From: Phlegmacium glaucopus
Lineage: Eukaryota > Basidiomycota > Agaricomycetes > Agaricales > Cortinariaceae
Assembly: GCA_015039465.1 (NCBI GenBank)
Contig: MU130701.1
Coordinates: 1-64,000 of the forward strand
Direction: 5' to 3'
Length of the DNA stretch: 64,000 nucleotides
The notes under the pieces are model-generated. The model did not search any database. It was given only the letters and a program-made list of their open reading frames with translations, and was not told the DNA's origin. Of this stretch, positions 2,601 through 49,760 are shown one piece after another. Numbering within the stretch: the stretch's first letter is position 1; each line of letters opens with the position of its first letter. Both the position numbers and the translations under genes were made by a program.

Positions 2601-4022
2601 TTTTCCAGTTAACTAACCATATTTACTTATTTTATGATCAATTTATGGTAAATCAGCTCAATTTACAGGTTCAATTTATGAAATTGAGCTAGTTCAACAT
2701 TGCACACCCTTAGTTCTTGCCTCCCGTCACTGATTGACAGCTCAGGGTCTCATCCTAACTGGTCAGTAAGCCAGAAACCAAATATCCCTCCCTGCTAGAT
2801 ATAAATCTATATGCTCCTATATGCTTCTTACAATATAGCCTATATATATAGCCTATAATCTATTAATCTATAGCTAGTGTTTACTAAAACAAAACAAAAA
2901 ACTCTAAAAGGAACTTGTTATTGGACACAGGAAAAGGGTGTGGGCTGGCTTACCAAGCTCCCCCATCATTTCCAACACGAACTTCATCAACTTCTCACCA
3001 CTTCCTGATCTCCCTCCCCAGGGTCCCATGCTGATTTACCCAGGATTTACCGGCCCCCGTAAATTTGGCAAAATATCTCTACTTATTTGCATTATTCTAC
3101 AGGTTAAATGGCACAATGTTGTTGAGACAATGAAGGCCACTGTGGACAAAGTTGGTAAGGCCACTGTGAGCAAAGTGTATGTGGCCTAACATGCCACATA
3201 AATGGGCCACCTCCATTGTATCATCCTAATATAAATACCGTACTATTTACACAAACATACCTCAGTCGTTATATCAAGTGACTGAGGTATGCCATCTTGT
3301 TTTATCTTTCACTTGCATCATTTACTCATACTGTATCTAGTGTTACATACTATCTAGGTACAGTTGACCAAATATAGTCGTTATATCAAGTGACTGAGTG
3401 TTACATTACTACCTAGGGTTTAAGATCTTAACAAATGTACCTGTATCTGTAATGAAAATATTTATTCAAGTCACCAACACCATATATTTCCAATCAGAAG
3501 TACATCATTTTTTGGTCTGGCATAGTACATAATCAATAATATGTCTCATTTACTTTATAACTTCAGGTTTTATTGATATTAATACACTCCTATTGCAAGA
3601 ATACAATTCAAAGTTGTCACTAGTTGGCAAAATGATTTAGTAGTATTTTTTCTTTTCATGTTTACTTTTAGTGATGTCATAGTTATAACACCAATACTAC
3701 AAACTTCTGGCCTCAAATTTCAAGATATATTTATTGCTAAGAAATAAGATGTAATTTTAGAAAATAAAATTTAAAATAAGAATTTCTTGTCTAATTGGTG
3801 CAGTACTTTACCCTCCCCCACACATTCCGCTCGGATCCGAGCAGATCCAAGCAGTCCAAGCAGATCCGAGCAGATTCCAAGCGGAATGGTTGGATCCAAG
3901 CAGAGTCCAAGCAGAGTCCAAGCAGAGTCCAAGCAGAGTCCAAGCAGATTCCAAGCAGATTCCAAGCAGATTCCAAGTGGATCCAAGCAAATAAGACACA
4001 AATTTATTGGGAAAATACTTCT

Positions 4023-4381
4023 GTTAAGGCTTTGTTAAGGTTTTGTTAAGGTTTTTTTAAGGTTTTTGTTATGGTTTTGTTAAGGTTTTGTTAAGGTTTT
4101 TGTTAAGGTTCTGTTAAGGTTAGGGAGGTATATAATTTGTTAGGGTTTTGTTAAGGTTTTGTTAAGGTTTTTGTTAAGGTTGTGTTAAGGTTAGGGAGGT
4201 ACATCAGCAAACCTTGGTGTGACCTACAGTCACTACAGGTCACTACAGGCTCTGCCCAGTGCTGCGTAGTGACCTATAGTGACCATAGTGACCATAGGTC
4301 ACACCAAGGTTTGCTGATGTATATGGTTTGTTAAGGTTTTATTAAGGTTTTGTTAAGGTTTTGTTAAGGTTAGGGAGGTAT
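4023..4381. repeat. TTAAGGTTTTG tandem repeat
   Basis: Irregular tandem copies of GTTAAGGTTTT(T)GTTAAGG run from about 4023 to 4198 and again from about 4325 to 4375, split by the foldback at 4202-4319. It lies in the centre of the hAT-like MITE. It resembles no telomere repeat exactly and is treated as simple internal satellite. Confidence 0.6.
4202..4319. mobile_element. 118-bp foldback element with TA target duplication
   Basis: CATCAGCAAACCTTGGTGTG on the left is matched exactly in reverse on the right (CACACCAAGGTTTGCTGATG), and the complementarity continues inward through GACCTA and GTGACC blocks. TA dinucleotides stand on both sides (4200-4201 and 4320-4321). It interrupts the TTAAGGTTTTG repeat, so it is younger than the repeat and than the hAT-like MITE that carries it. 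Confidence 0.75.
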
Positions 4382-5224
4382 ATAGGTTCCATTCCTAGCA
4401 GTCCAAGCAGATCCGAGCAGGTCTGAGCAAATTCCACTCAGAATACACTCAGAAAGTGCTTGGATCTGCTTGGATCTGCTTGGAATTTGCTCAGAATCTG
4501 CTCAGAATCTGCTTGGACTCTGCTCAGATCCAACCATTCCACTCGGAATCTACTCGGATCTGCTCAGACTGCTCAGGGGAGAGTAAAGACCTCAATTGGT
4601 GATATTTTAACAAAAGTCTATTTTTAACTGGTTCTTATGGTGAGAACTGGTTCTGGTTCTGGTTCTGAGAAAATGGGTCCTGAACCAAACCAAACTGAAC
4701 TTTGGCAACCCTATGCAATATGACACAATTAGCACAATAACTAAATAATTCCAACAAGAACATGCCAACCTGGCTCTACAAATACTTTGTGACCACTATT
4801 GACATGAAGTGAAACAAGGGTGAACAACAACAAGAGAGACAATGACAAGGCTTGATTCTGAACTCTGGAGTAACCTTTTCAAACTCACTATTTCTCATTT
4901 TGCCAGCCACTAGTGACATTTCCTGCCATTCAGCTTGTTGAAAAATCTATCATAACACTGACACATGGACATACCTTTCAATATTTAATCCCCTACTCTA
5001 ATATTTCTTAGCGACAGCATACCATCTTCAGAAATTACAGATAGTTGATGAGCTGTCCAATGGCCGTCTCTCGCAGGTAAATTGCTGAACTGGTAACGAA
5101 AGATTGATCACAATATACGGTGAACTGATACACATGCAGATGCCATTTCATTAGTATCACAACGAACATCAAAAACCCATACTTTTTGATGGCTACATGA
5201 CACACAAGCCCAACATACGAAGAA

Positions 5225-23551: not shown

Positions 23552-26199
23552 TCAATATCCGACACCGTTACGCATCCTCACCCAGCTTGCATGACCCCCT
23601 TGTCTGGGATTATGCGGATACGTATACCCATAGGCATGAACAAGTGGCGGTGGATATGTCGAGCTCTGTGAGGGTGTGGGATAAAACTGGACTCCAACAC
23701 CTGGAGGGCCGGCGTTTGCGAACGGCGCCGAGGGAACAGGGACGCGTTCATGTTGTTCCTGCTGTGCAGAGACAGTGACAGAGGCAGTACCAGCGGGATG
23801 ATGCTGATGCTGACGGTGGCGGTGATAGTAAGGCGCAGGCGCAGCTGAATGGGATGAGGCGGAGGACGTCTCTTGAACAGGACTTGAAGGGTACACGTGA
23901 CGCGTAGGAGCGTAGTCCATTTGCTGGCTGTCTGGTTGCTGTGCCGCATACATCGGTAAATCTTCCTGCTGCTGCTCGGTAGTGTAGTCATAGCCGTATC
24001 CGTACGTGTCAATTCGATCACACTCCCTGCCCGATTGTTGCTGTTGCTGTTCTTGTGAGGACAATTGTTGAGACACACGAACGATAGGGGCAGCCGGTGG
24101 TCTCGCCCAAACATCATCATGGAAATATGGCAAGTGACCACATTCAACATCCTCCATTCCCATGGCCATCGCGGGACTTGTTGACGCGCTTTGAACGACA
24201 GCTGGCATCATTACTACTTGTGGCTGTTGGAGGAATCGCGCCGCCGCGCCACTGTAAGAATGTGTTTGGGGAGCAACAGTGATCTGATTCAGGGTGCTGT
24301 GCCCATTGACCTCAGTGTCGTATAATGGTCCATTCGGCGGTGCGTTCATATCTCCATATGAGTATGACGTGGAAGATGAGGTTGATGAGGTGGGTTGGTG
24401 ATATCTCAAGAGCGCTTTTCGAGGACGCGATTCTTCACTAACAGACGCGTCGTATAGAGGCGAGCTTGCCAGTTTATAGAAGTACAATGCCTGGGATTAG
24501 AATATATATTAATTATGGGAAAAGTTGAAAATGTTAAATGGAAAAACTAACCTGAGGAGCAGTCGACTTCTTTCCCTCATCTAACATATAGGCCGTGACC
24601 AACGTCTCAGGGACAATCGTGGGTCTCGCTGTTGTCGCTGCCATCCTACTAATCCCATTGCCATTTTCAGCCCACGGGCTGCTGGCTTCTAGGGGTGAAT
24701 GACCACCCATACTCGTATTTAGTGACATCTTCGAGAAGGATTGCAGCCCATCCAAAGGTGAATGCGAGCTCGAATGCGAGCTTGTTCCGGAAGAACTCAA
24801 ACACTCCGGAATATGCAACGACATCGATAGTGGACGCTTGCTAGGAAGCTGAGACAAGCTAGCGGTAGTAGGCGAAAACGCGTCTTGCGCAGAGCGTTTG
24901 GAACCAGATCGTGGTGTGGGTGAAGCATTTTGAGCAGAGAGAAATTGAGACGTGTACTGGATAGCAGACGCGGGTGGAGGAGGAGGCGGGGGTTCAGGAT
25001 ATGAGACGTTATGTGAGACTTGTGGATGTGAGACTTGTGGATGTGACAGCGTTCGACTTGTAGGCGAAGTTGAACGTGCCCTATGACGGTACACTGGTGG
25101 TTTTTGTCTAGACGAAGATACGTAGGTCCTAGTCGCCGGACCTGTAGACGAAGGATGGTGTGGGGTAGCTGCAAGTCGAGACTGGTGCGCCAGGCTCCTT
25201 GACTTCCTAAAATGCTTACTATCCCGCTCCTTCGCCATAATCAACCCTTTGAGAAGGTTGAGCCAAGACTCATACGTGGATTTGTCCACATATAAGTTAA
25301 AATCGACCCCAACAAGAAATTCGCGCTCCATTCGATTAATTTCTTCCAAGTCGATCCCAGAAACCTCTGACCACGTCTTATTCGTATACGTATTACTATA
25401 GAATAATGAGATTTTTTTGTTTTGACAAATAGCAGAAATAACAGATGCGTACTCGTCCAAAAATTTGTTCGCCATCATTAACCCAGCCACTGCTATCCGA
25501 AACTCACTCCCTGACTGTGCTGGTGTAAAACGATTACGTTCCTTTAAACGGTGAATGTAGTGTAGCGATAGAACCATGACCGACTGGGATACTTGAGTTG
25601 TTTCAAGTAGTTTTTGCATAAATTGAACAAAATTAGGGGTGGCCACTAATTGGAGCGTTGAGGGTGATGAACCACGTGCAAATAAAGGTGGAGAGCCATT
25701 GGAAGAGGGTTGTGATCGCTCTGGTGGTGAAGTAGCAAACCACAGGTAGCAGATCATCTCGCAAGTTTTCTCGGCCACCGAGTGGGCTGACCGCCGTGTC
25801 GAATCCAACCAATCTACAAAGTACGACAGCTCTACTGGTTGTTTTGATTGAAAGACATCCATTGAGAGTTTGGGTGGAGGTTCCCGAGACGTAGGTGGAA
25901 TGTCTTGTGGAGGTGTTACTTTTGTGAAAAAAAGAATGATGAGATGAAAGACGCGTTAATTAGGAGAACATACGTGGCGGTAGACTTCGTTCGAGATGAG
26001 CTATTGGTGGTAGTGTCGTTCTCTCGACGTGAGGTTGTTGTTGAAGAACTTTTGAATGGAAAGTTGAAGACAAAGGCGGAGTGAGAGGAGTCTTTGAAGA
26101 TGACCTCCAGGGTGCCCATGAATTGAATCTAATAGTGGCGTTCATTTTGAAAGCGTCGGGAGTACGAGGAAGAACCGTTGCAGCTGTATAAAAGGCCAT
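23552..26199 (-). CDS. Pho80/Pcl-type cyclin, 843 aa
   Basis: Three exons are in phase: 25974-26199, 24552-25918 and 23552-24490. The cyclin box begins about residue 100 with ELSYFVDWLDS and TCEMICYLWF, then FVQFMQKLLETTQVSQSVMVLSLHYIHRLKERN, FRIAVAGLMMANKFLDE and the Pho80/Pcl signature KTWSEVSGIDLEEINRMEREFL with DFNLYV. That identifies a regulatory subunit of a Pho85-like CDK, acting in cell-cycle, polarity or nutrient control. The long tail is disordered, with Ser/Pro runs, a polyproline stretch (PPPPPPPA), Gln runs (QEQQQQQS) and His-rich segments. A short N-terminal exon MAFYTAATVLPRTPDAFK matches the usual start in this subfamily. The tail is much longer than yeast Pcl proteins, which is common in basidiomycetes. 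Symbol left open because Pcl subtype cannot be fixed by eye. Confidence 0.9.
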
Positions 26200-39314: not shown

Positions 39315-42046
39315 ATGCATGATTTACCCGAAGGCCCTCAGTCACCATCGTATGGCTCCTTCCTTCCCAACGCAAATAGGGTCATTATGAACCAACCCAC
39401 ATTCAATATGGTTGGTGGAAATATGATCGATAATCGTAGGGAAAAGCCATCTCATGTACGTAAGGTCGAGTCAACTACAGCCCAAAAACTGACTACATTC
39501 AAGTGGAATACGTACCGATGGGTCGAGTTCGATCAGCAAACACTGCGACGTCTACATACCAGTTCCACTGGCATTGTGACCAGTGAGATGGAGCTGGTGA
39601 CATCAGTGGCCTCGCGTGTTAAAGTGTATCGCATCCATGAGTACAGAGATAGTGAAGATCTTTTTTACAATCATCTGGAATTTGCCAAATCACCGTGTGT
39701 TTTGTTGCCTTGCCGTACCATTTTTTAAATTTCTGACACATACTATAAAGACTGGCTCGTCGGCCAGATATATCCCAGTTCCTCGGAACTTCTATTGATA
39801 ATGAAGATGGTGACCGATTTATTGTCCTTTCTGGTGGTATGAGTGTAGCCTTACAATGTTTACATGTCCCTCACATTGCATTTCTGCAGGTGGTTCGTCT
39901 TTGTCAAGTGTTTCCATCAGAAGTCATGCAGACTTAGAAATAGCAAAGATGGCTGCTGTATGTTCTGATAGATTGAGTTTCTGCCATCCTTTCATAATGT
40001 TAACTGACTGTTGCTCAGTTATTTCAACTAGTAGTGAGCACTTATACTGGCATATATCTTTTAAAAATAACTGGAATTTTGTAGGACATATTCAACACAA
40101 TCCCCTTCACTGTGTTACACTGGAATTGGTCAACATTTTGGCACCTACCCATATTTTGCCCAAATTATGGACTTCTTGTGGATGTTATTCTCCTAGAATC
40201 ATATGGCTTACTAGCAAGTTCCAAAGGGAGTAGTAGCAAGAAGGTAATATATTCACTGAGTGACATAGAACCATAAAATATGTACTTACTTGTTCATCAT
40301 AGGGTCTCAATATTGCAAATATACATGCAAGGCTACAAGACCAGACATGTGAGTGATATGGCTTTCATCAAAGAGATAGAAAGAGCCTCACAGTTGTTCA
40401 TGATATAGCACCTGGTGATAAGGAGAGAATATTGCATTTCAGGCCAGACATCAACCCAAGAGAGACTGTTAGAAAAAGCTTCAAGGTGGCAAGAAAAATA
40501 GTCAGTACTTGAAATTAGTCCTTACTGTCATCCCTAGCTAACAACAATGAACTTTCTCTGCATCACAGTTTGTAAGTGCTGTCTCTCCTGGCTGTTATCT
40601 ATAACTGACAACAATGACCTCTCTCTGCATTGCAGTATGTGAGTGCTCTCTCTGTTGGCTGTCATTTATAGCTGACAACAATGGCCTCTCTCTGCATTGC
40701 AGGATGTGAATGCTGACTTTCATAAGTGTCATCCCTAGCTGACAAGAATGACCTCTGCATTGCAGGATGTAAGTGCTCTCTCTCCTGGCTATCATCCCTA
40801 GCTGACAACAACAACCTCTCTGCATTGCAGGATGTGAGTGCTCTCTCTCCTGGTTACCATTCCTGGCTGACAATAATGACCCCTCTCTGTATTGCAGGAT
40901 GTGAATACTCTCTTTCATAGGTGCCATCCCTAGCTGACAACAATGACCTCTCTCTGCATTGCAGCATGTGAGTGCTCTCTCTAGGGCTGCCATCCCTGGC
41001 TGATAACAATGACCTCTCTCTGTATTGCAGCCTGTGAGTGCCCTGTCTCCTCTGGCTGTCATCCCAAATTGACAACAATGACCTCTTTCTGCATTGCAGA
41101 ATGTGAGTGCTCTGTCTTCTGGCAGTCATCTCTAGCTGATAACAATGGCCTCTCTCTGCATTGCAGGATGTGAGTGCTCTGTCTCCCAGCTGTCATCTCT
41201 AGCTGATAAAAATGACCTCTCTCTGTATTGCAGCCTGTGAGTGCCCTGTCTCCTCTGGCTATCATCCCAAATTGACAACAATGACCTCTTCCTGCATTGC
41301 AGAATGTGAGTGCTCTGTCTCCTGGCAGTCATCTCTAGCTGATAACAATGGCCTCTCTCTGCATTGCAGCTTGTGAGCGCTGTCTCCCAGCTGTCATCTC
41401 TAGCTAACAACAATGATGTGCATTGCAGAGTGTGAGTGCTCTCTCTTCTGACTGTCATCTCTAGACTCTGGCTGATAAAAATGACCTCCTTCTGTATTGC
41501 AGATTGTGAGTGCTCTGTCTCCTGGCTGTCATCCATAGCTGACAACAATGACCTCTCTCTGCATTACAGTTTGTGAGTGCTCTGCCCTTGGCTGTCATCC
41601 TTAGCTGACAACAATGGTCTCTATTCATTGAAGTTTGTGAGTACTCTCCTGGCTGTCATTCCTAGTTGACAACAATGATCTCTCTCTGCATTGCAGTTTG
41701 TGAGTGCTCTCCTGGGTGTCATCCCTAACTGACAAAAATTGTCTCTCTCTGCATTGCAGGATGTGAGTCTCTCTCTCCTGGCTGTCATCTCTAGGCTCTA
41801 GCTGAAACAATGGCCTCTTGCATTGCAGGATGTGAGTACTCTGTCTTCCAGCTGTCATCTCTGGCTGACAACAATGACCTGTTTTTGCATTGCAGTTTGT
41901 GAGTGCTCACTCTCCTAATTGTCATCCCTAGTTTATAAGAACAAACTCTCTCTGTGCATTGCAGATTGTGAGTGCTCTGTCTCCTGGCCATCACCCCTAG
42001 TTGACAACAATGACCTCTCCCTGCATTGCAGCTAAGGTTACACTGA
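39315..42046 (+). CDS. Unnamed multi-exon protein gene leading into a tandem intron array
   Basis: Seven exons join in phase with GT-AG introns: 39315-39694, 39751-39836, 39890-39957, 40019-40033, 40085-40243, 40303-40348 and 40394-40500 (287 codons). The protein starts MHDLPEGPQSPSYGSF and has FNMVGGNMIDNR, resembling the GGxFxxVxGD-type start of many Agaricomycete kinase-like and NLR-like proteins. It continues LARRPDISQFLGTSIDNEDG, where a decayed kinase-like N-lobe would fit, then FIVLSGGGSS and ARLQDQTFVHDIAPGDK. Exon 7 ends at a codon boundary and is followed directly by the first of 23 intron-like units. If all are spliced, 22 single-codon exons, then LRLH-stop at 42046, complete a product of about 313 aa. 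Alternatively everything from 40501 to 42031 is removed as one intron, leaving the same short tail. An LTR fragment follows within 100 bp, so the original 3' end may be lost. Function unknown; the kinase-like comparison is inference. Confidence 0.5.
40501..42031 (+). repeat. Array of 23 intron-like units separated by 3-nt spacers
   Basis: Each unit starts GT(G/A)A(G/A)TG-like, carries CTGAC/CTGAT/TTGAC as a branch site, a CT-rich tract and ends CAG (once AAG). Lengths run 56-71 nt, mostly 64. Unit starts are 40501, 40572, 40639, 40706, 40769, 40834, 40901, 40968, 41034, 41103, 41170, 41237, 41306, 41373, 41432, 41506, 41573, 41637, 41700, 41763, 41832, 41899 and 41968. Every spacer is exactly three bases of form NNT: GAT seven times, TTT five, CCT, AAT and ATT twice each, TAT, CAT, CTT and AGT once. 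The array lies on the sense strand of the host gene, directly after a phase-0 exon end. The CCT/AAT pair recurs 203 bp later, indicating segmental duplication. Confidence 0.9.
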
Positions 42047-42129
42047 GTCGTAAACTAGGTATTTATAGTAAATAGAGAGTGTCGTGCATAAGGTGGAACG
42101 AGCACATGTAAGAGAGTATGCATATTCCG

Positions 42130-42488
42130 CCTTTCCGATGACCTCCGACCTTCTGTCCAACTCCACTTCCATCACCAGTTTACTCTGGAACCCCGTAACT
42201 CCATTCCAACTCCGATCCTCCGGTTTGCTCCGCCTTTTATTTCTATTTTTCACATCACACCACTTCTTATTTGATTAATTAATTATTATCATATCATTCC
42301 TTTATTTATTTTATATCTCTGTTATGTCCATATTAGTACTTAAATACCCCTTAGCCTAGCAGGGATCCCCATCCTTTCCTCTTTGGATCCCCTGCTAGGT
42401 GAGTCACTTGTAGATATCCCTTTGAAATATTATTAACTTTGGATCCCCTGCTAGCTTGACTAAGTTAGCGTCGCAGTTGCCCTAACAG
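42130..42488 (+). mobile_element. LTR family B, 5'-damaged copy
   Basis: From GCCTTTCCGATGACCTCC to TTGCCCTAACA the sequence matches the solo LTR at 2186-2600 almost throughout, including the TTAAATACCCC TATA-like box and the CTAGCAGGGATCCCC block. The left 50 bp with TGTTAGGG cannot be found, and the pentamer GTTCC after the right end has no partner on the left. It abuts the Ty3/gypsy pol fragment in the opposite orientation, so it is a separate insertion that cut that element. Confidence 0.75.
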
Positions 42489-43822
42489 TTCCACTATGAA
42501 GTCCACACTAATTGTGTCCCATGGAGCATTCAGAATTGGGAGGGGGTGAAGTTCACTGACCGGGTGACGTCTTTGAGCCTTGGTCCGAAGACACAGGTCA
42601 CAGGTTGAGGCATATTTTCTGATATACCGGGACATCTGTGGCCACCAATAGTTTTGGGATACAAGTTCGAGGGTTTTCCACCTTTTTGGATGCCCGGAAA
42701 TTAGAGTGTCATGGCAGAGGGATACAATCCATCTTCGCAAGTCAAACATGTCCAAAACATAGATTTTTCCTTGGAAGGAGAGGATGTTGTTGTCATGAGA
42801 CCATTCTGCTGATCGGACAGATTGTGTGTGAGTGGTTTTCAACTCCTTTACCACTTTAGCTATGGCCTCTTCTTTTACACCTTCACGGGTGCCTTTCCGG
42901 ATGTCTTTCAAGACGTCTCGTTCTTCTCCTATGACTTCCAGTCCTTCTAAGGCTCGAATCGCGAAGAAGCCTGGAGTTAGGAGTGTGATGTTGTCATTGT
43001 CACTGGTTCTGGTTCTGTGGTCCACTTGTCTAGATAAAGTGTCTGGTTTTCCCATACTTTTGCCTGGTCTGTGGTGCATGAGGAAATCAAACCGGGCCAG
43101 GAACAATGACCAACGGGCTTGTCTCTGATTGAGCTTTTTGGCTGTCATGAAGTATTTCAAGTTCTTGTGATCAGTCCAGATCTCACACTTATGTTCCGCT
43201 CCTTCAAAGAAGTGTCTCCACTCTTCTAGGGCTCAGATGATCACTAGCATCTCTTTGTTGTGGATCTCATAGTTCCGTTCAACCGGGGATAAGGATTTAG
43301 ACAGGAATGCGACCTGGTGCCATTTTTCATCACTGAGGGATTGTTGGGAAAGTACGGCTCTGGTTGCAAAATCGGAACTGTCTGCTTTGATGCGGAACGG
43401 CCTGGAGTTGTCCGGAGAGGCTAGAATTGGGGTTGAAGTGATCAGGTTTTTGAGAGAATCAAATGCCAATTGCTCCTCCATATTCCATCTCCATTTGATG
43501 TAATTTTTGGTGAGATCAAACAAGGGACGGGCATGATGAGAAAAGTCTTGGATGAACCTTTGGTAAAAGTTGGTAAAGCCTAGGAATGACTGGACTTCCT
43601 TGTTGTTTGTTGGAGTCGGCCATTCTGCTACTCCAGCAACTTTTACAGGGTCCATCTCGATGGAGTTATGAGATATTATGACTCCAAGGTATTCCACCTT
43701 GGTTTGTTTGAACTCGCACTTGTCTGGTTTTAGGAAGAGTTTATGCTTCTGTAGAAGTTCCAGTACTCTCCAGGTTATGGACCGGTGTTCTTCCAGTGTC
43801 TCTGTGAATATCAGGATATGTT
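42489..43822 (-). pseudogene. Truncated Ty3/gypsy pol (RT end, RNase H, integrase start)
   Basis: Reading leftward from 43822: HILIFTETLEEH (directly after the missing reverse transcriptase catalytic DD box), LKPDKCEFKQTKVEYLGVIIS, a connection domain with WPTPTNNKEVQSFLGFTNFY, RNase H (KADSSDFATRAVLSQ, IHNKEML, WTDHKNLKYF), PGKSMGKPDTLSRQ, then the integrase HHCC zinc finger (HDTLISGHPKRWKT, CDLCLRTK) and WDTISVDF. It stops there at the LTR fragment, so most of the integrase core and all of gag and the RT palm are gone. One in-frame TGA follows EMLVII at a position where the family usually has Arg, consistent with a CGA to TGA change. Not functional. Confidence 0.9.
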
Positions 43823-48339: not shown

Positions 48340-48893
48340 TTCATTTGTCATTCACTGTTCATTTGTCATTCACTGTTCATTTGTCATTCACTGTTCATTT
48401 GTCATTCACTGTTCATTTGTCATTCACTGTTCATTTGTCATTCACTGTTCATTTGTCATTCACTGTTCATTTGTCATTCACTGTTCATTTGTCATTCACT
48501 GTTCATTTGTCATTCACTGTTCATTTGTCATTCACTGTTCATTTGTCATTCACTGTTCATTTGTCATTCACTGTTCATTTGTCATTCACTGTTCATTTGT
48601 CATTCACTGTTCATTTGTCATTCACTGTTCATTTGTCATTCACTGTTCATTTGTCATTCACTGTTCATTTGTCATTCACTGTTCATTTGTCATTCACTGT
48701 TCATTTGTCATTCACTGTTCATTTGTCATTCACTGTTCATTTGTCATTCACTGTTCATTTGTCATTCACTGTTCATTTGTCATTCACTGTTCATTTGTCA
48801 TTCACTGTTCATTTGTCATTCACTGTTCATTTGTCATTCACTGTTCATTTGTCATTCACTGTTCATTTGTCATTCACTGTTCATTTGTCATTC
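48340..48893. repeat. 18-bp minisatellite, about 30 near-perfect copies
   Basis: Unit TTCATTTGTCATTCACTG. The sequence repeats every 180 bp without change across the block (48361, 48541 and 48721 lines are identical). Because 18 is divisible by three, all three plus frames stay open and give hexapeptide repeats. These are not genes. The edges decay into CATT-rich sequence to about 49170. Confidence 0.95.
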
Positions 48894-49760
48894 ATCACCA
48901 TCATTCATCACTCTTCATTCATGTTCATCACTCTTCATTAAATGTTCATCGTCACCATTTGTTCATTGTTCATCACCTTTCTTCATTATTTGTCACTATT
49001 TGGTCATCAATCCTCACTATTTGTTCATCCTTCATTACCATTTGTTCATCATTACCACTTGTTCATTGATTATCATTCGTGGTTCATCATTGTTTGTTAT
49101 TTATTGTTGTTCATTCATCAGTGTTTGTTTGTTGTTCTCTGTTGCAGTTTACATTAGAATTAGAATTTGAAATAAATTTAAATACCCCATCATTGTGTCT
49201 GTTGTCCATGTCCCTATGTGTTGTTGTTGTAAGTGACAGTAAGTCATAGTCATTCATCCTTGTTTGTCATTTGTTGTTGTTCATTTGTCACCATTCATTT
49301 GATATCATTCATCTGTCGCAGTGTCTGCTGTGTAGCTTGTTGTTCCCTGAGCAGTGACATGGAGAGACGATGATATGGTGATGCTATTGGTAGGTGGTGA
49401 TGATTGTTCATCATTGTTTGTCCTTGTCATTCACTACCTTTTGTCCATGGGGGATGTTGGGGGATGTTATTCTAGTAGCACCTAGATAATAAAAATAGCA
49501 ATTGTTAGTATTAAAAAAAAACAAGGAAGAAAAAAGAAAAAAGAAACTTAGTAACATCATGTTGAGAGGCTTCTCAACATGAGTTGTCATTGGTGGTGAT
49601 GGTGGTTTGTTGTTGTTGTTGTATCTCAGCATTGTGGTTTATTGTTGTTGTTGTTGTGGCTGGCATTGTGGCTGGCATCGCCATCAATGGTCATGTTGAA
49701 ACTTGAAGAGTGAAAAAAATAAGCATGCATTAATGTAAATAATTTCAATCTCTGACTCCT
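48894..49760. other. CATT/TTG-rich low-complexity region
   Basis: TTCATC- and GTTGTT-rich sequence continues from the minisatellite, including a TTGTTGTTG run near 49605-49660. A short inverted repeat CATGTTGAGA..TCTCAACATG lies at about 49558-49581. No gene is seen. Confidence 0.5.

What the first reader, a model, noticed from the sequence alone, without database searches (positions are those of the whole stretch)
40501..42031. Twenty-three consecutive intron-like units separated by exactly 3-nt spacers inside a gene
Seen: 23 tandem units of 56-71 nt, each with a GT(G/A)A(G/A) donor, CTGAC-like branch site, pyrimidine tract and CAG acceptor. They are separated by 22 spacers of precisely three bases, all NNT. 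The units diverge internally and in length, yet donor, acceptor and the 3-nt spacing persist. The first two spacer bases vary freely (GA, TT, CC, AA, AT, TA, CA, CT, AG). The array sits on the sense strand directly after an exon ending at a codon boundary, so full splicing would add 22 codons without frame loss, and NNT can never be a stop. Inference: either an extreme chain of one-codon micro-exons, or a ratchet in which a 1.5-kb intron, far longer than the 45-70 nt introns seen elsewhere, is removed stepwise at juxtaposed acceptor/donor sites. A minisatellite that merely grew from an intron plus three bases is the null explanation. I know of no described array of this kind.
Basis: partly seen in the sequence, partly recalled or inferred. 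Interest (0 to 1): 0.95.

Follow-up and report, generated by a model that had tools for sequence, protein, structure and literature searches.

The report
Mushroom genes with one-codon exon chains
In a mushroom genome, parts of some genes seem to be cut up so that each single codon is its own exon between two short introns, tens of times in a row, a gene layout that the literature searched here does not describe.

Summary
In detail: 23 intron-like units (40501-42031) with 22 three-base spacers, all NNT, entered in phase 0. The genome is that of the mushroom Phlegmacium glaucopus. The window copy is one of 7 paralogs with arrays and looks degraded: usual start lost, 3' part missing. In the 7 arrays 180 of 181 spacers are 3 nt, one is 6, none of the 180 is a stop. 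The same design occurs in other, dissimilar families. In family A (19 loci, 954 spacers) there are 3 stops against 87 or 46 expected by two shuffles, and 502 of 508 spacers are exactly 3 nt. Stop avoidance means that spacers are translated: these are chains of one-codon exons, with up to 81 junctions in a chain. Four of five short contigs from relatives run past the array position into array-like peptides; one continues into the downstream exon. Against: none of 10 annotated P. glaucopus models includes array codons, no RNA of this fungus was available, and relatives' DNA was not seen. Ten literature searches gave isolated 3-nt exons and schistosome micro-exon genes, but no one-codon arrays.

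The parts
39504..39694 (+). host exon 1b (WNTYRWVEFDQQ...EFAKSP); the first part of exon 1 (MDRLL... in most paralogs) has lost its usual start here
   Evidence: open in all 7 paralogs, AG before and GT after
39751..39836 (+). host exon 2
39890..39957 (+). host exon 3
40019..40033 (+). 15-nt exon (LFQLV here; FFQLM or FFQLL in annotated models of paralogs)
40085..40243 (+). host exon 4
40303..40348 (+). host exon 5
40409..40500 (+). host exon 6 (...VRKSFKVARKI), ends at a codon boundary before the array
40501..42031 (+). array of 23 intron units and 22 one-codon micro-exons (peptide FYDDDDHPNDPNLSIFFFDDFI)
40501..40568 (+). unit 1, whose 5' half (GTCAGTA..) is unlike the repeat and shared by all 7 paralogs; probably the 5' end of the ancestral intron
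40569..40571 (+). micro-exon 1 (TTT). The other 21 start at 40636, 40703, 40766, 40831, 40898, 40965, 41031, 41100, 41167, 41234, 41303, 41370, 41429, 41503, 41570, 41634, 41697, 41760, 41829, 41896, 41965
41968..42031 (+). last unit (23); in the six other paralogs the array goes on to the TSxIEELSD exon, in this copy it does not
42465..43160 (-). open frame with Integrase_H2C2, probably of an antisense retroelement, just beyond the place where the gene copy is cut off

Best explanation
The array is a chain of one-codon exons. Each 56-71-nt unit is a normal short spliceosomal intron and each 3-nt spacer is a whole codon that is kept in the mRNA. The units are probably removed one after another: when an intron is spliced, the next codon joins the growing exon and, with the following GTRAGT, forms the next donor, the codon being positions -3 to -1 of that donor (inferred). 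Because every junction is in phase 0, any donor can join any later acceptor without frame loss, so skipping only drops codons (inferred). The result is a C-terminal tail, rich in F/D/L/W/N in this family, followed in the other paralogs by ordinary exons (TSxIEELSD...DEMHVDS...). The window holds one of seven paralogs and is probably a decayed copy, without the usual promoter and start and without its 3' part. The same design is used in other, dissimilar gene families of the genome. Shown: structure, length rule, stop avoidance, phase, copy number. Inferred: order of splicing, use in this fungus's own mRNA, function of the tail.
For: (1) Seven loci, 181 spacers: 180 of 3 nt, 1 of 6 nt (one artefact dropped). 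The parser requires AG and GT/GC, so the telling fact is that it ran to the end of every array with no unit over 73 nt, i.e. no junction lost; donors are GT 179, GC 2. Meanwhile 109 of 181 units differ in length from the modal 64 nt. (2) Stops: 0 of 180, expected 8.2; family A 3 of 954 (2 TAG, 1 TAA, 0 TGA), expected 86.7 +- 6.9 by within-array shuffles (lowest of 3000: 65), or 45.8 +- 4.5 when only the third base is shuffled (lowest 31). TAA and TGA create no splice signal, yet are 1 against 44.7 expected from pooled base frequencies. (3) Spacer lengths in family A, from strong acceptor to strong donor: 502 of 508 are 3 nt, 4 are 0, 2 are 6. (4) The last micro-exons of family A lie between introns that differ from each other; in 15 of 19 loci (L015, L027, L028 gave no anchor match; L017, with a large insertion there, left out) 74 of 75 are 3 nt and one is 6 nt. 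(5) Host exons are open in all 7 paralogs, dN/dS median 0.51; the array leaves in phase 0 into ordinary exons in the 6 other paralogs (read by eye). (6) Family 1 relatives on contigs under 2 kb: 4 of 5 (P0007, P0009, P0012, P0021) continue past the array position into a tail; the fifth (P0014) ends upstream. P0009 (352 aa in 1110 nt) reads YKKDFEFDDELFDLDFFLDDFFFKEDELFDLDFFFG there; P0012 runs through about 45 residues into STSKIEELSDDEMD, the downstream exon. None of the contigs has room for array introns. For family A, P0029 has such a tail. (7) The last spacer base is almost never C (0 of 180; 1 of 954), as expected if it is position -1 of a used donor.
Against: No RNA of this fungus was available. 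None of the 10 annotated P. glaucopus models found includes array codons: P0003, P0004 and P0026 skip the array, P0001, P0002, P0025 and P0028 end in the intron before it, P0005, P0006 and P0027 end earlier; the Flammula model P0011 also ends in that intron. Of three family A relatives on contigs under 2 kb, one (P0029) continues, one (P0030) ends before the array and one (P0032) does not reach it. The DNA of the relatives' contigs was not seen: a relative with an uninterrupted exon there would show translation but not splicing, and tail compositions differ (P0007 is short and hydrophobic). Spacers are not independent, since units were duplicated. In this small family the third-base shuffle alone gives only P = 0.06; the weight comes from family A. 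The spacers of family 1 vary far more than the introns, so their residues do not look conserved. Three stops do occur in family A. Assembly of long arrays may hold errors.
Confidence: 0.86

Rival explanations
1. Minisatellite null: the array is one long intron that grew by tandem duplication of an intron plus three bases; it is removed whole and the spacers are never in mRNA.
For: Tandem duplication clearly happened (W units 8-10 copied as 11-13). Annotated models P0003, P0004 and P0026 splice over the whole array.
Against: Stop avoidance (3 of 954 against 87 or 46 expected), 3-nt spacing kept between non-repeated introns, no junction lost although units differ by about 17-18%, and array-like peptides on short contigs of relatives.
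Confidence: 0.06
2. The protein normally ends in the first intron (KIVSN stop) and the array is untranslated.
For: Models P0001 and P0002 end so, and family A models P0025 and P0028 and contig P0030 end likewise in the intron before the array. May be a real isoform.
Against: Spacers would then be free to become stops; P0009, P0012 and P0021 continue past this point.
Confidence: 0.06
3. Recursive splicing ratchet without exon inclusion: internal acceptor/donor pairs only help to remove a long intron stepwise.
For: Juxtaposed acceptor and donor at every junction; stepwise removal is likely also in the preferred model.
Against: Classical ratchet points are zero-length exons (recalled), but the spacer is 3 nt in 682 of 689 cases, and codons would not be kept free of stops.
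Confidence: 0.04
4. The chains are real and spliced in, but the tails have no function: arrays spread by drift because errors only drop codons in frame.
For: Codons in the family 1 arrays are nearly saturated; arrays differ widely between paralogs (19-32 spacers); the window copy is decaying.
Against: Composition is far from the host's (F/W/Y/L 48%, D/E 22%, K/R 1% in family 1); amino acid kept at one aligned family A position (E in 8 of 9 loci with the same flanking introns, 7 GAA and 1 GAG); 7 of 8 codons kept in a run of a diverged block copy at C41, 8 of 17 over the whole offset (offset chosen after looking).
Confidence: 0.3

Closest known systems
Micro-exon genes (MEGs) of schistosomes
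   Same: Many small symmetrical exons that can be skipped in frame, up to 75% of the coding sequence (PMC4015677, passages)
   Different: MEG exons are longer than one codon (recalled), mostly in secreted proteins; here dozens of exactly one-codon exons separated by similar short introns, in a mushroom
Isolated 3-nt and 1-nt micro-exons (mouse Ncam, Drosophila TnT, plant APC11/VPS55)
   Same: Exons of one codon or less are spliced in (PMC8042270 and PMC8831610, passages)
   Different: In what I saw, single micro-exons or two adjacent ones (5 and 12 nt), not arrays
Introner-like elements of fungi
   Same: Families of similar short spliceosomal introns multiplying in a genome (PMC4457414, passages)
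   Different: Those lie in hundreds of copies in unrelated genes; here the introns are stacked side by side, one per codon, inside gene families
Stwintrons and recursive splicing
   Same: Consecutive splicing reactions at adjoining sites (listing and starts of abstracts)
   Different: There an intron splits a splice signal of another, or a recursive donor is used; here a full codon is left between complete introns

Membership tests
Micro-exon genes | several consecutive symmetrical micro-exons in one gene | tested here: met
   180 of 181 spacers 3 nt, 1 of 6 nt, all symmetrical; that they are exons is inferred from stop avoidance
Micro-exon genes | transcripts shown to include and skip the micro-exons | not testable with these tools
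   no RNA of this fungus; relatives' contigs suggest inclusion
Micro-exon genes | homology to schistosome MEG families, secretion signal | not tested
   host proteins here are a protein with no Pfam match and a GTPase relative (P0027, PF01926)
Introner-like elements | near-identical introns in many copies | tested here: met
   an 81-base family A query has 1211 matches, 40 of 52 candidate places scored
Introner-like elements | copies dispersed at single positions in many unrelated genes | tested here: inconclusive
   in what I read, copies lie in arrays inside paralogous loci; the match lists were truncated
Stwintron | donor, branch or acceptor of one intron interrupted by another intron | tested here: not met
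   complete donor and acceptor in every unit with 3 nt between
Recursive splicing ratchet point | zero-length exon (AG directly followed by GT; definition recalled) | tested here: not met
   3-nt spacers; 4 of 508 are zero in family A
Intronic minisatellite | tandem repeat | tested here: met
   TRF
Intronic minisatellite | no constraint on the repeated sequence | tested here: not met
   stop avoidance, fixed 3-nt spacing, no junction lost

The most novel reading that the evidence does not exclude
Phlegmacium glaucopus uses codon-by-codon splicing as a protein-building system: in several dissimilar gene families, chains of up to about 80 one-codon exons are spliced stepwise, each codon doubling as the exonic half of the next donor. 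Because every skip is in frame, each gene can yield a large set of tails, and in one family the codons change much faster than the introns around them.
Probability: 0.4. Interest if true: 0.98.

Novelty: categorically new. Interest (0 to 1): 0.95.

Why it matters
It would be an extreme of exon-intron structure: coding DNA diluted about 20-fold, with each codon a separate exon. It tests how a spliceosome handles overlapping acceptor and donor sites in long series, gives a tractable case for how introns multiply (introns stacked between codons, nearly identical in at least one recent array), and the annotated models seen here miss these protein segments entirely. It is directly testable with one long-read cDNA run.

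Tried and rejected
Coding tandem repeat read straight through: rejected, units are mostly not multiples of 3 and 19 of 22 units in the window have an in-frame stop if retained. Laccaria as host, a first guess from genome size: dropped once the protein search named Phlegmacium glaucopus. Structure of P0009 with its relatives: mean pLDDT 34.5, not interpreted, no fold search made. Nearest-neighbour unit distances were distorted by gaps; redid them around each spacer. The column alignment misplaced the donor end and so its indel count (112 of 181) is inflated; I use unit lengths instead. Its spacer columns are direct counts; two interior columns (commonest base 44% and 50%) are as variable as the spacers, so a notebook remark that spacers are the most variable columns is too strong. 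Reversed-sequence control: 53 chains of 4-30 against 30 real chains of 4-81; not a fair control for tandem arrays, but it shows that chaining alone proves little. In one search the fifth-last codon of the second clade is probably not homologous, so E is counted only in the 9 loci with matching introns; a notebook remark of 13 of 15 is superseded. The 32nd junction of C93a is a parsing artefact (a real exon), dropped before later counts.

Full report
What was checked. The region 40501-42031 holds 23 intron-like units and 22 three-base spacers, all NNT; TRF sees it as 22.7 copies of 67 bp. The chain finder sees no other chain of 4 or more in the 64-kb window on either strand; Markov versions of 26 loci give none, while reversed copies of the array loci give 53 chains of 4-30, so chaining alone is not evidence of function.

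Where it is. The genome held for this window has 60.5 Mb in 259 contigs. The protein search returns Phlegmacium glaucopus models. Contig lengths given for them equal those of this genome for C93 (174591), C209 (279338), C8 (459859) and C62 (880866), and differ by 4-6 kb for the models that match C67, C17 and C41; P0001 is 100% identical to the C67 query over its matched part. The upstream gene region occurs 8 times: 7 full-length matches at 81-100% identity, including the window, and one 63-base fragment. All 7 full loci carry an array.

The host gene. Six exons plus a 15-nt exon lead in phase 0 to the first donor; all are open in the window copy, and the six longer ones in all 7 paralogs, with median dN/dS 0.51 and dS 0.24. 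In the six other paralogs ordinary exons follow the array, in phase 0, read by eye, with smaller arrays of two or three one-codon exons between them where I looked. The window copy lacks the stretch with TATATAA and the ATG start that 5 of the 6 others have (no TATATAA) and stops after unit 23, about 430 bases before an antisense frame with an integrase domain, so it is probably a decaying copy. No Pfam family matches the host protein.

The length and splice-site rule. In the 7 arrays, 180 of 181 spacers are 3 nt and one is 6 nt; donors are GT 179 and GC 2; the parser demands AG and GT/GC but ran to the end of every array with no unit over 73 nt, so no junction was lost (one artefact dropped). 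Units differ by 17-18%, and 109 of 181 differ in length from the modal 64 nt. The last spacer base is T 139, G 36, A 5, C 0.

Spacers are codons. In this family 0 of 180 are stops against 8.2 expected (full shuffle P about 1e-4; third-base shuffle P 0.06); this alone is modest. Searching for the same grammar with other splice signals gave 1098 hits against 54 for the reversed pattern, and led to family A: period about 56 nt, chains of 7 to 81 junctions (the 81 run to the end of the fetched stretch), in a GTPase gene family. There 3 of 954 spacers are stops against 86.7 +- 6.9 or 45.8 +- 4.5 by two within-array shuffles, no shuffle of 3000 being below 65 or 31. TAG could also be avoided as a competing acceptor, but TAA and TGA (1 seen, 44.7 expected) could not. 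Of 508 spacers between a strong acceptor and a strong donor, 502 are 3 nt. Translation explains this best. At the 3' end of family A arrays, one-codon exons sit between introns that are not repeats of each other; over 15 of 19 loci 74 of 75 are 3 nt and one is 6, and at one position the residue is E in 8 of 9 comparable loci. Family B (C6, C16) adds 49 chained spacers without a stop, and a further repeat type was seen in 901 bases at C106. That the families are dissimilar is by eye.

How the codons evolve. In family 1 the commonest base holds 51% and 38% at spacer positions 1 and 2, against 77-99% in most intron columns. Spacer-centred comparison shows 75% of codons differing where the flanks differ by only 5% (20 pairs, mostly within C93a). 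In a block copy at C41, chosen after looking, 7 of 8 codons in a run are kept while the introns have diverged to background level. In a recent family A array (C78, L035) introns are nearly identical while codons differ (by eye). So codons and introns follow different rules; diversifying selection on codons, or homogenisation of introns, would fit. GTN and TGT spacers are absent in family 1 (0 seen; 17.8 and 8.7 expected), perhaps because they make a competing donor; in family A they are fewer than expected but present (26 against about 92, and 9 against 29).

Transcripts. I had no RNA from this fungus. Among relatives in a protein collection, five family 1 proteins or protein pairs lie on contigs under 2 kb. 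Four continue past the residue aligned to the last one before the array: P0009 (352 aa on 1110 nt, no room for the host gene's introns) into YKKDFEFDDELFDLD...; P0012 into about 45 residues and then the exon found after the array in P. glaucopus; P0021, whose contig still holds some upstream intron sequence; and P0007, with a short hydrophobic tail. P0014 ends upstream. None of these contigs could hold the introns of an array, so they are mRNA copies or come from relatives with an unbroken exon; I did not see their DNA. For family A, P0029 continues, P0030 ends before the array and P0032 does not reach it. The P0009 tail (F/W/Y/L 50%, D/E 39%) resembles family 1 codons (48%, 22%) more than the host (22%, 9%); the other tails vary. 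None of the 10 annotated P. glaucopus models includes array codons.

Mechanism. The simplest account is ordinary short introns removed in sequence, each splice adding one codon and rebuilding a donor. That the codon is also positions -3 to -1 of the next donor fits the near-absence of C in its last base. All junctions are phase 0, so any skipping is in frame. What the tails do is unknown; acidic and aromatic residues in family 1 suggest a disordered interaction tail (a guess).

Literature. Ten searches of the open library gave isolated 3-nt and 1-nt exons, schistosome micro-exon genes, introner-like elements and stwintrons, but no arrays of one-codon exons; subscription papers are mostly not held. 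I saw passages of PMC4015677, PMC4457414, PMC8831610 and PMC8042270 and only listings with starts of abstracts of the rest.

Noticed in passing
G000:C3, C8, C9, C11, C15, C52, C62, C71, C127, C145, C190, C220, C225, C237, C246, C78 (L015-L033, L035): Second, dissimilar family (A) of one-codon exon arrays, chains of 7 to 81 junctions in L015-L033, in a GTPase gene family; an 81-base query has 1211 matches in the genome.
   Followed up: yes
G000:C6 (L034), C16 (L037): Third array family (B), period about 74 nt, 34 and 15 codons chained without a stop, in another host gene.
   Followed up: partly
G000:C106:302200-303100 (L036); C82, C60, C181 by pattern only: Further array-like repeats with one-codon spacers and other intron sequences.
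   Followed up: no
window 48340-48894: Perfect 18-bp minisatellite, 30.8 copies at 100% matches.
   Followed up: no
window 42124-42490 and 2235-2603: Two copies of a repeat at 89% identity; the first begins about 90 bases after the array.
   Followed up: no
window 3836-4528: Arrays of 11-bp units (TCCAAGCAGAG, TGTTAAGGTTT) and later one close to the reverse complement of the first.
   Followed up: no
window 24534-25862 (-): Open frame with a cyclin domain (PF08613, PF00134).
   Followed up: no
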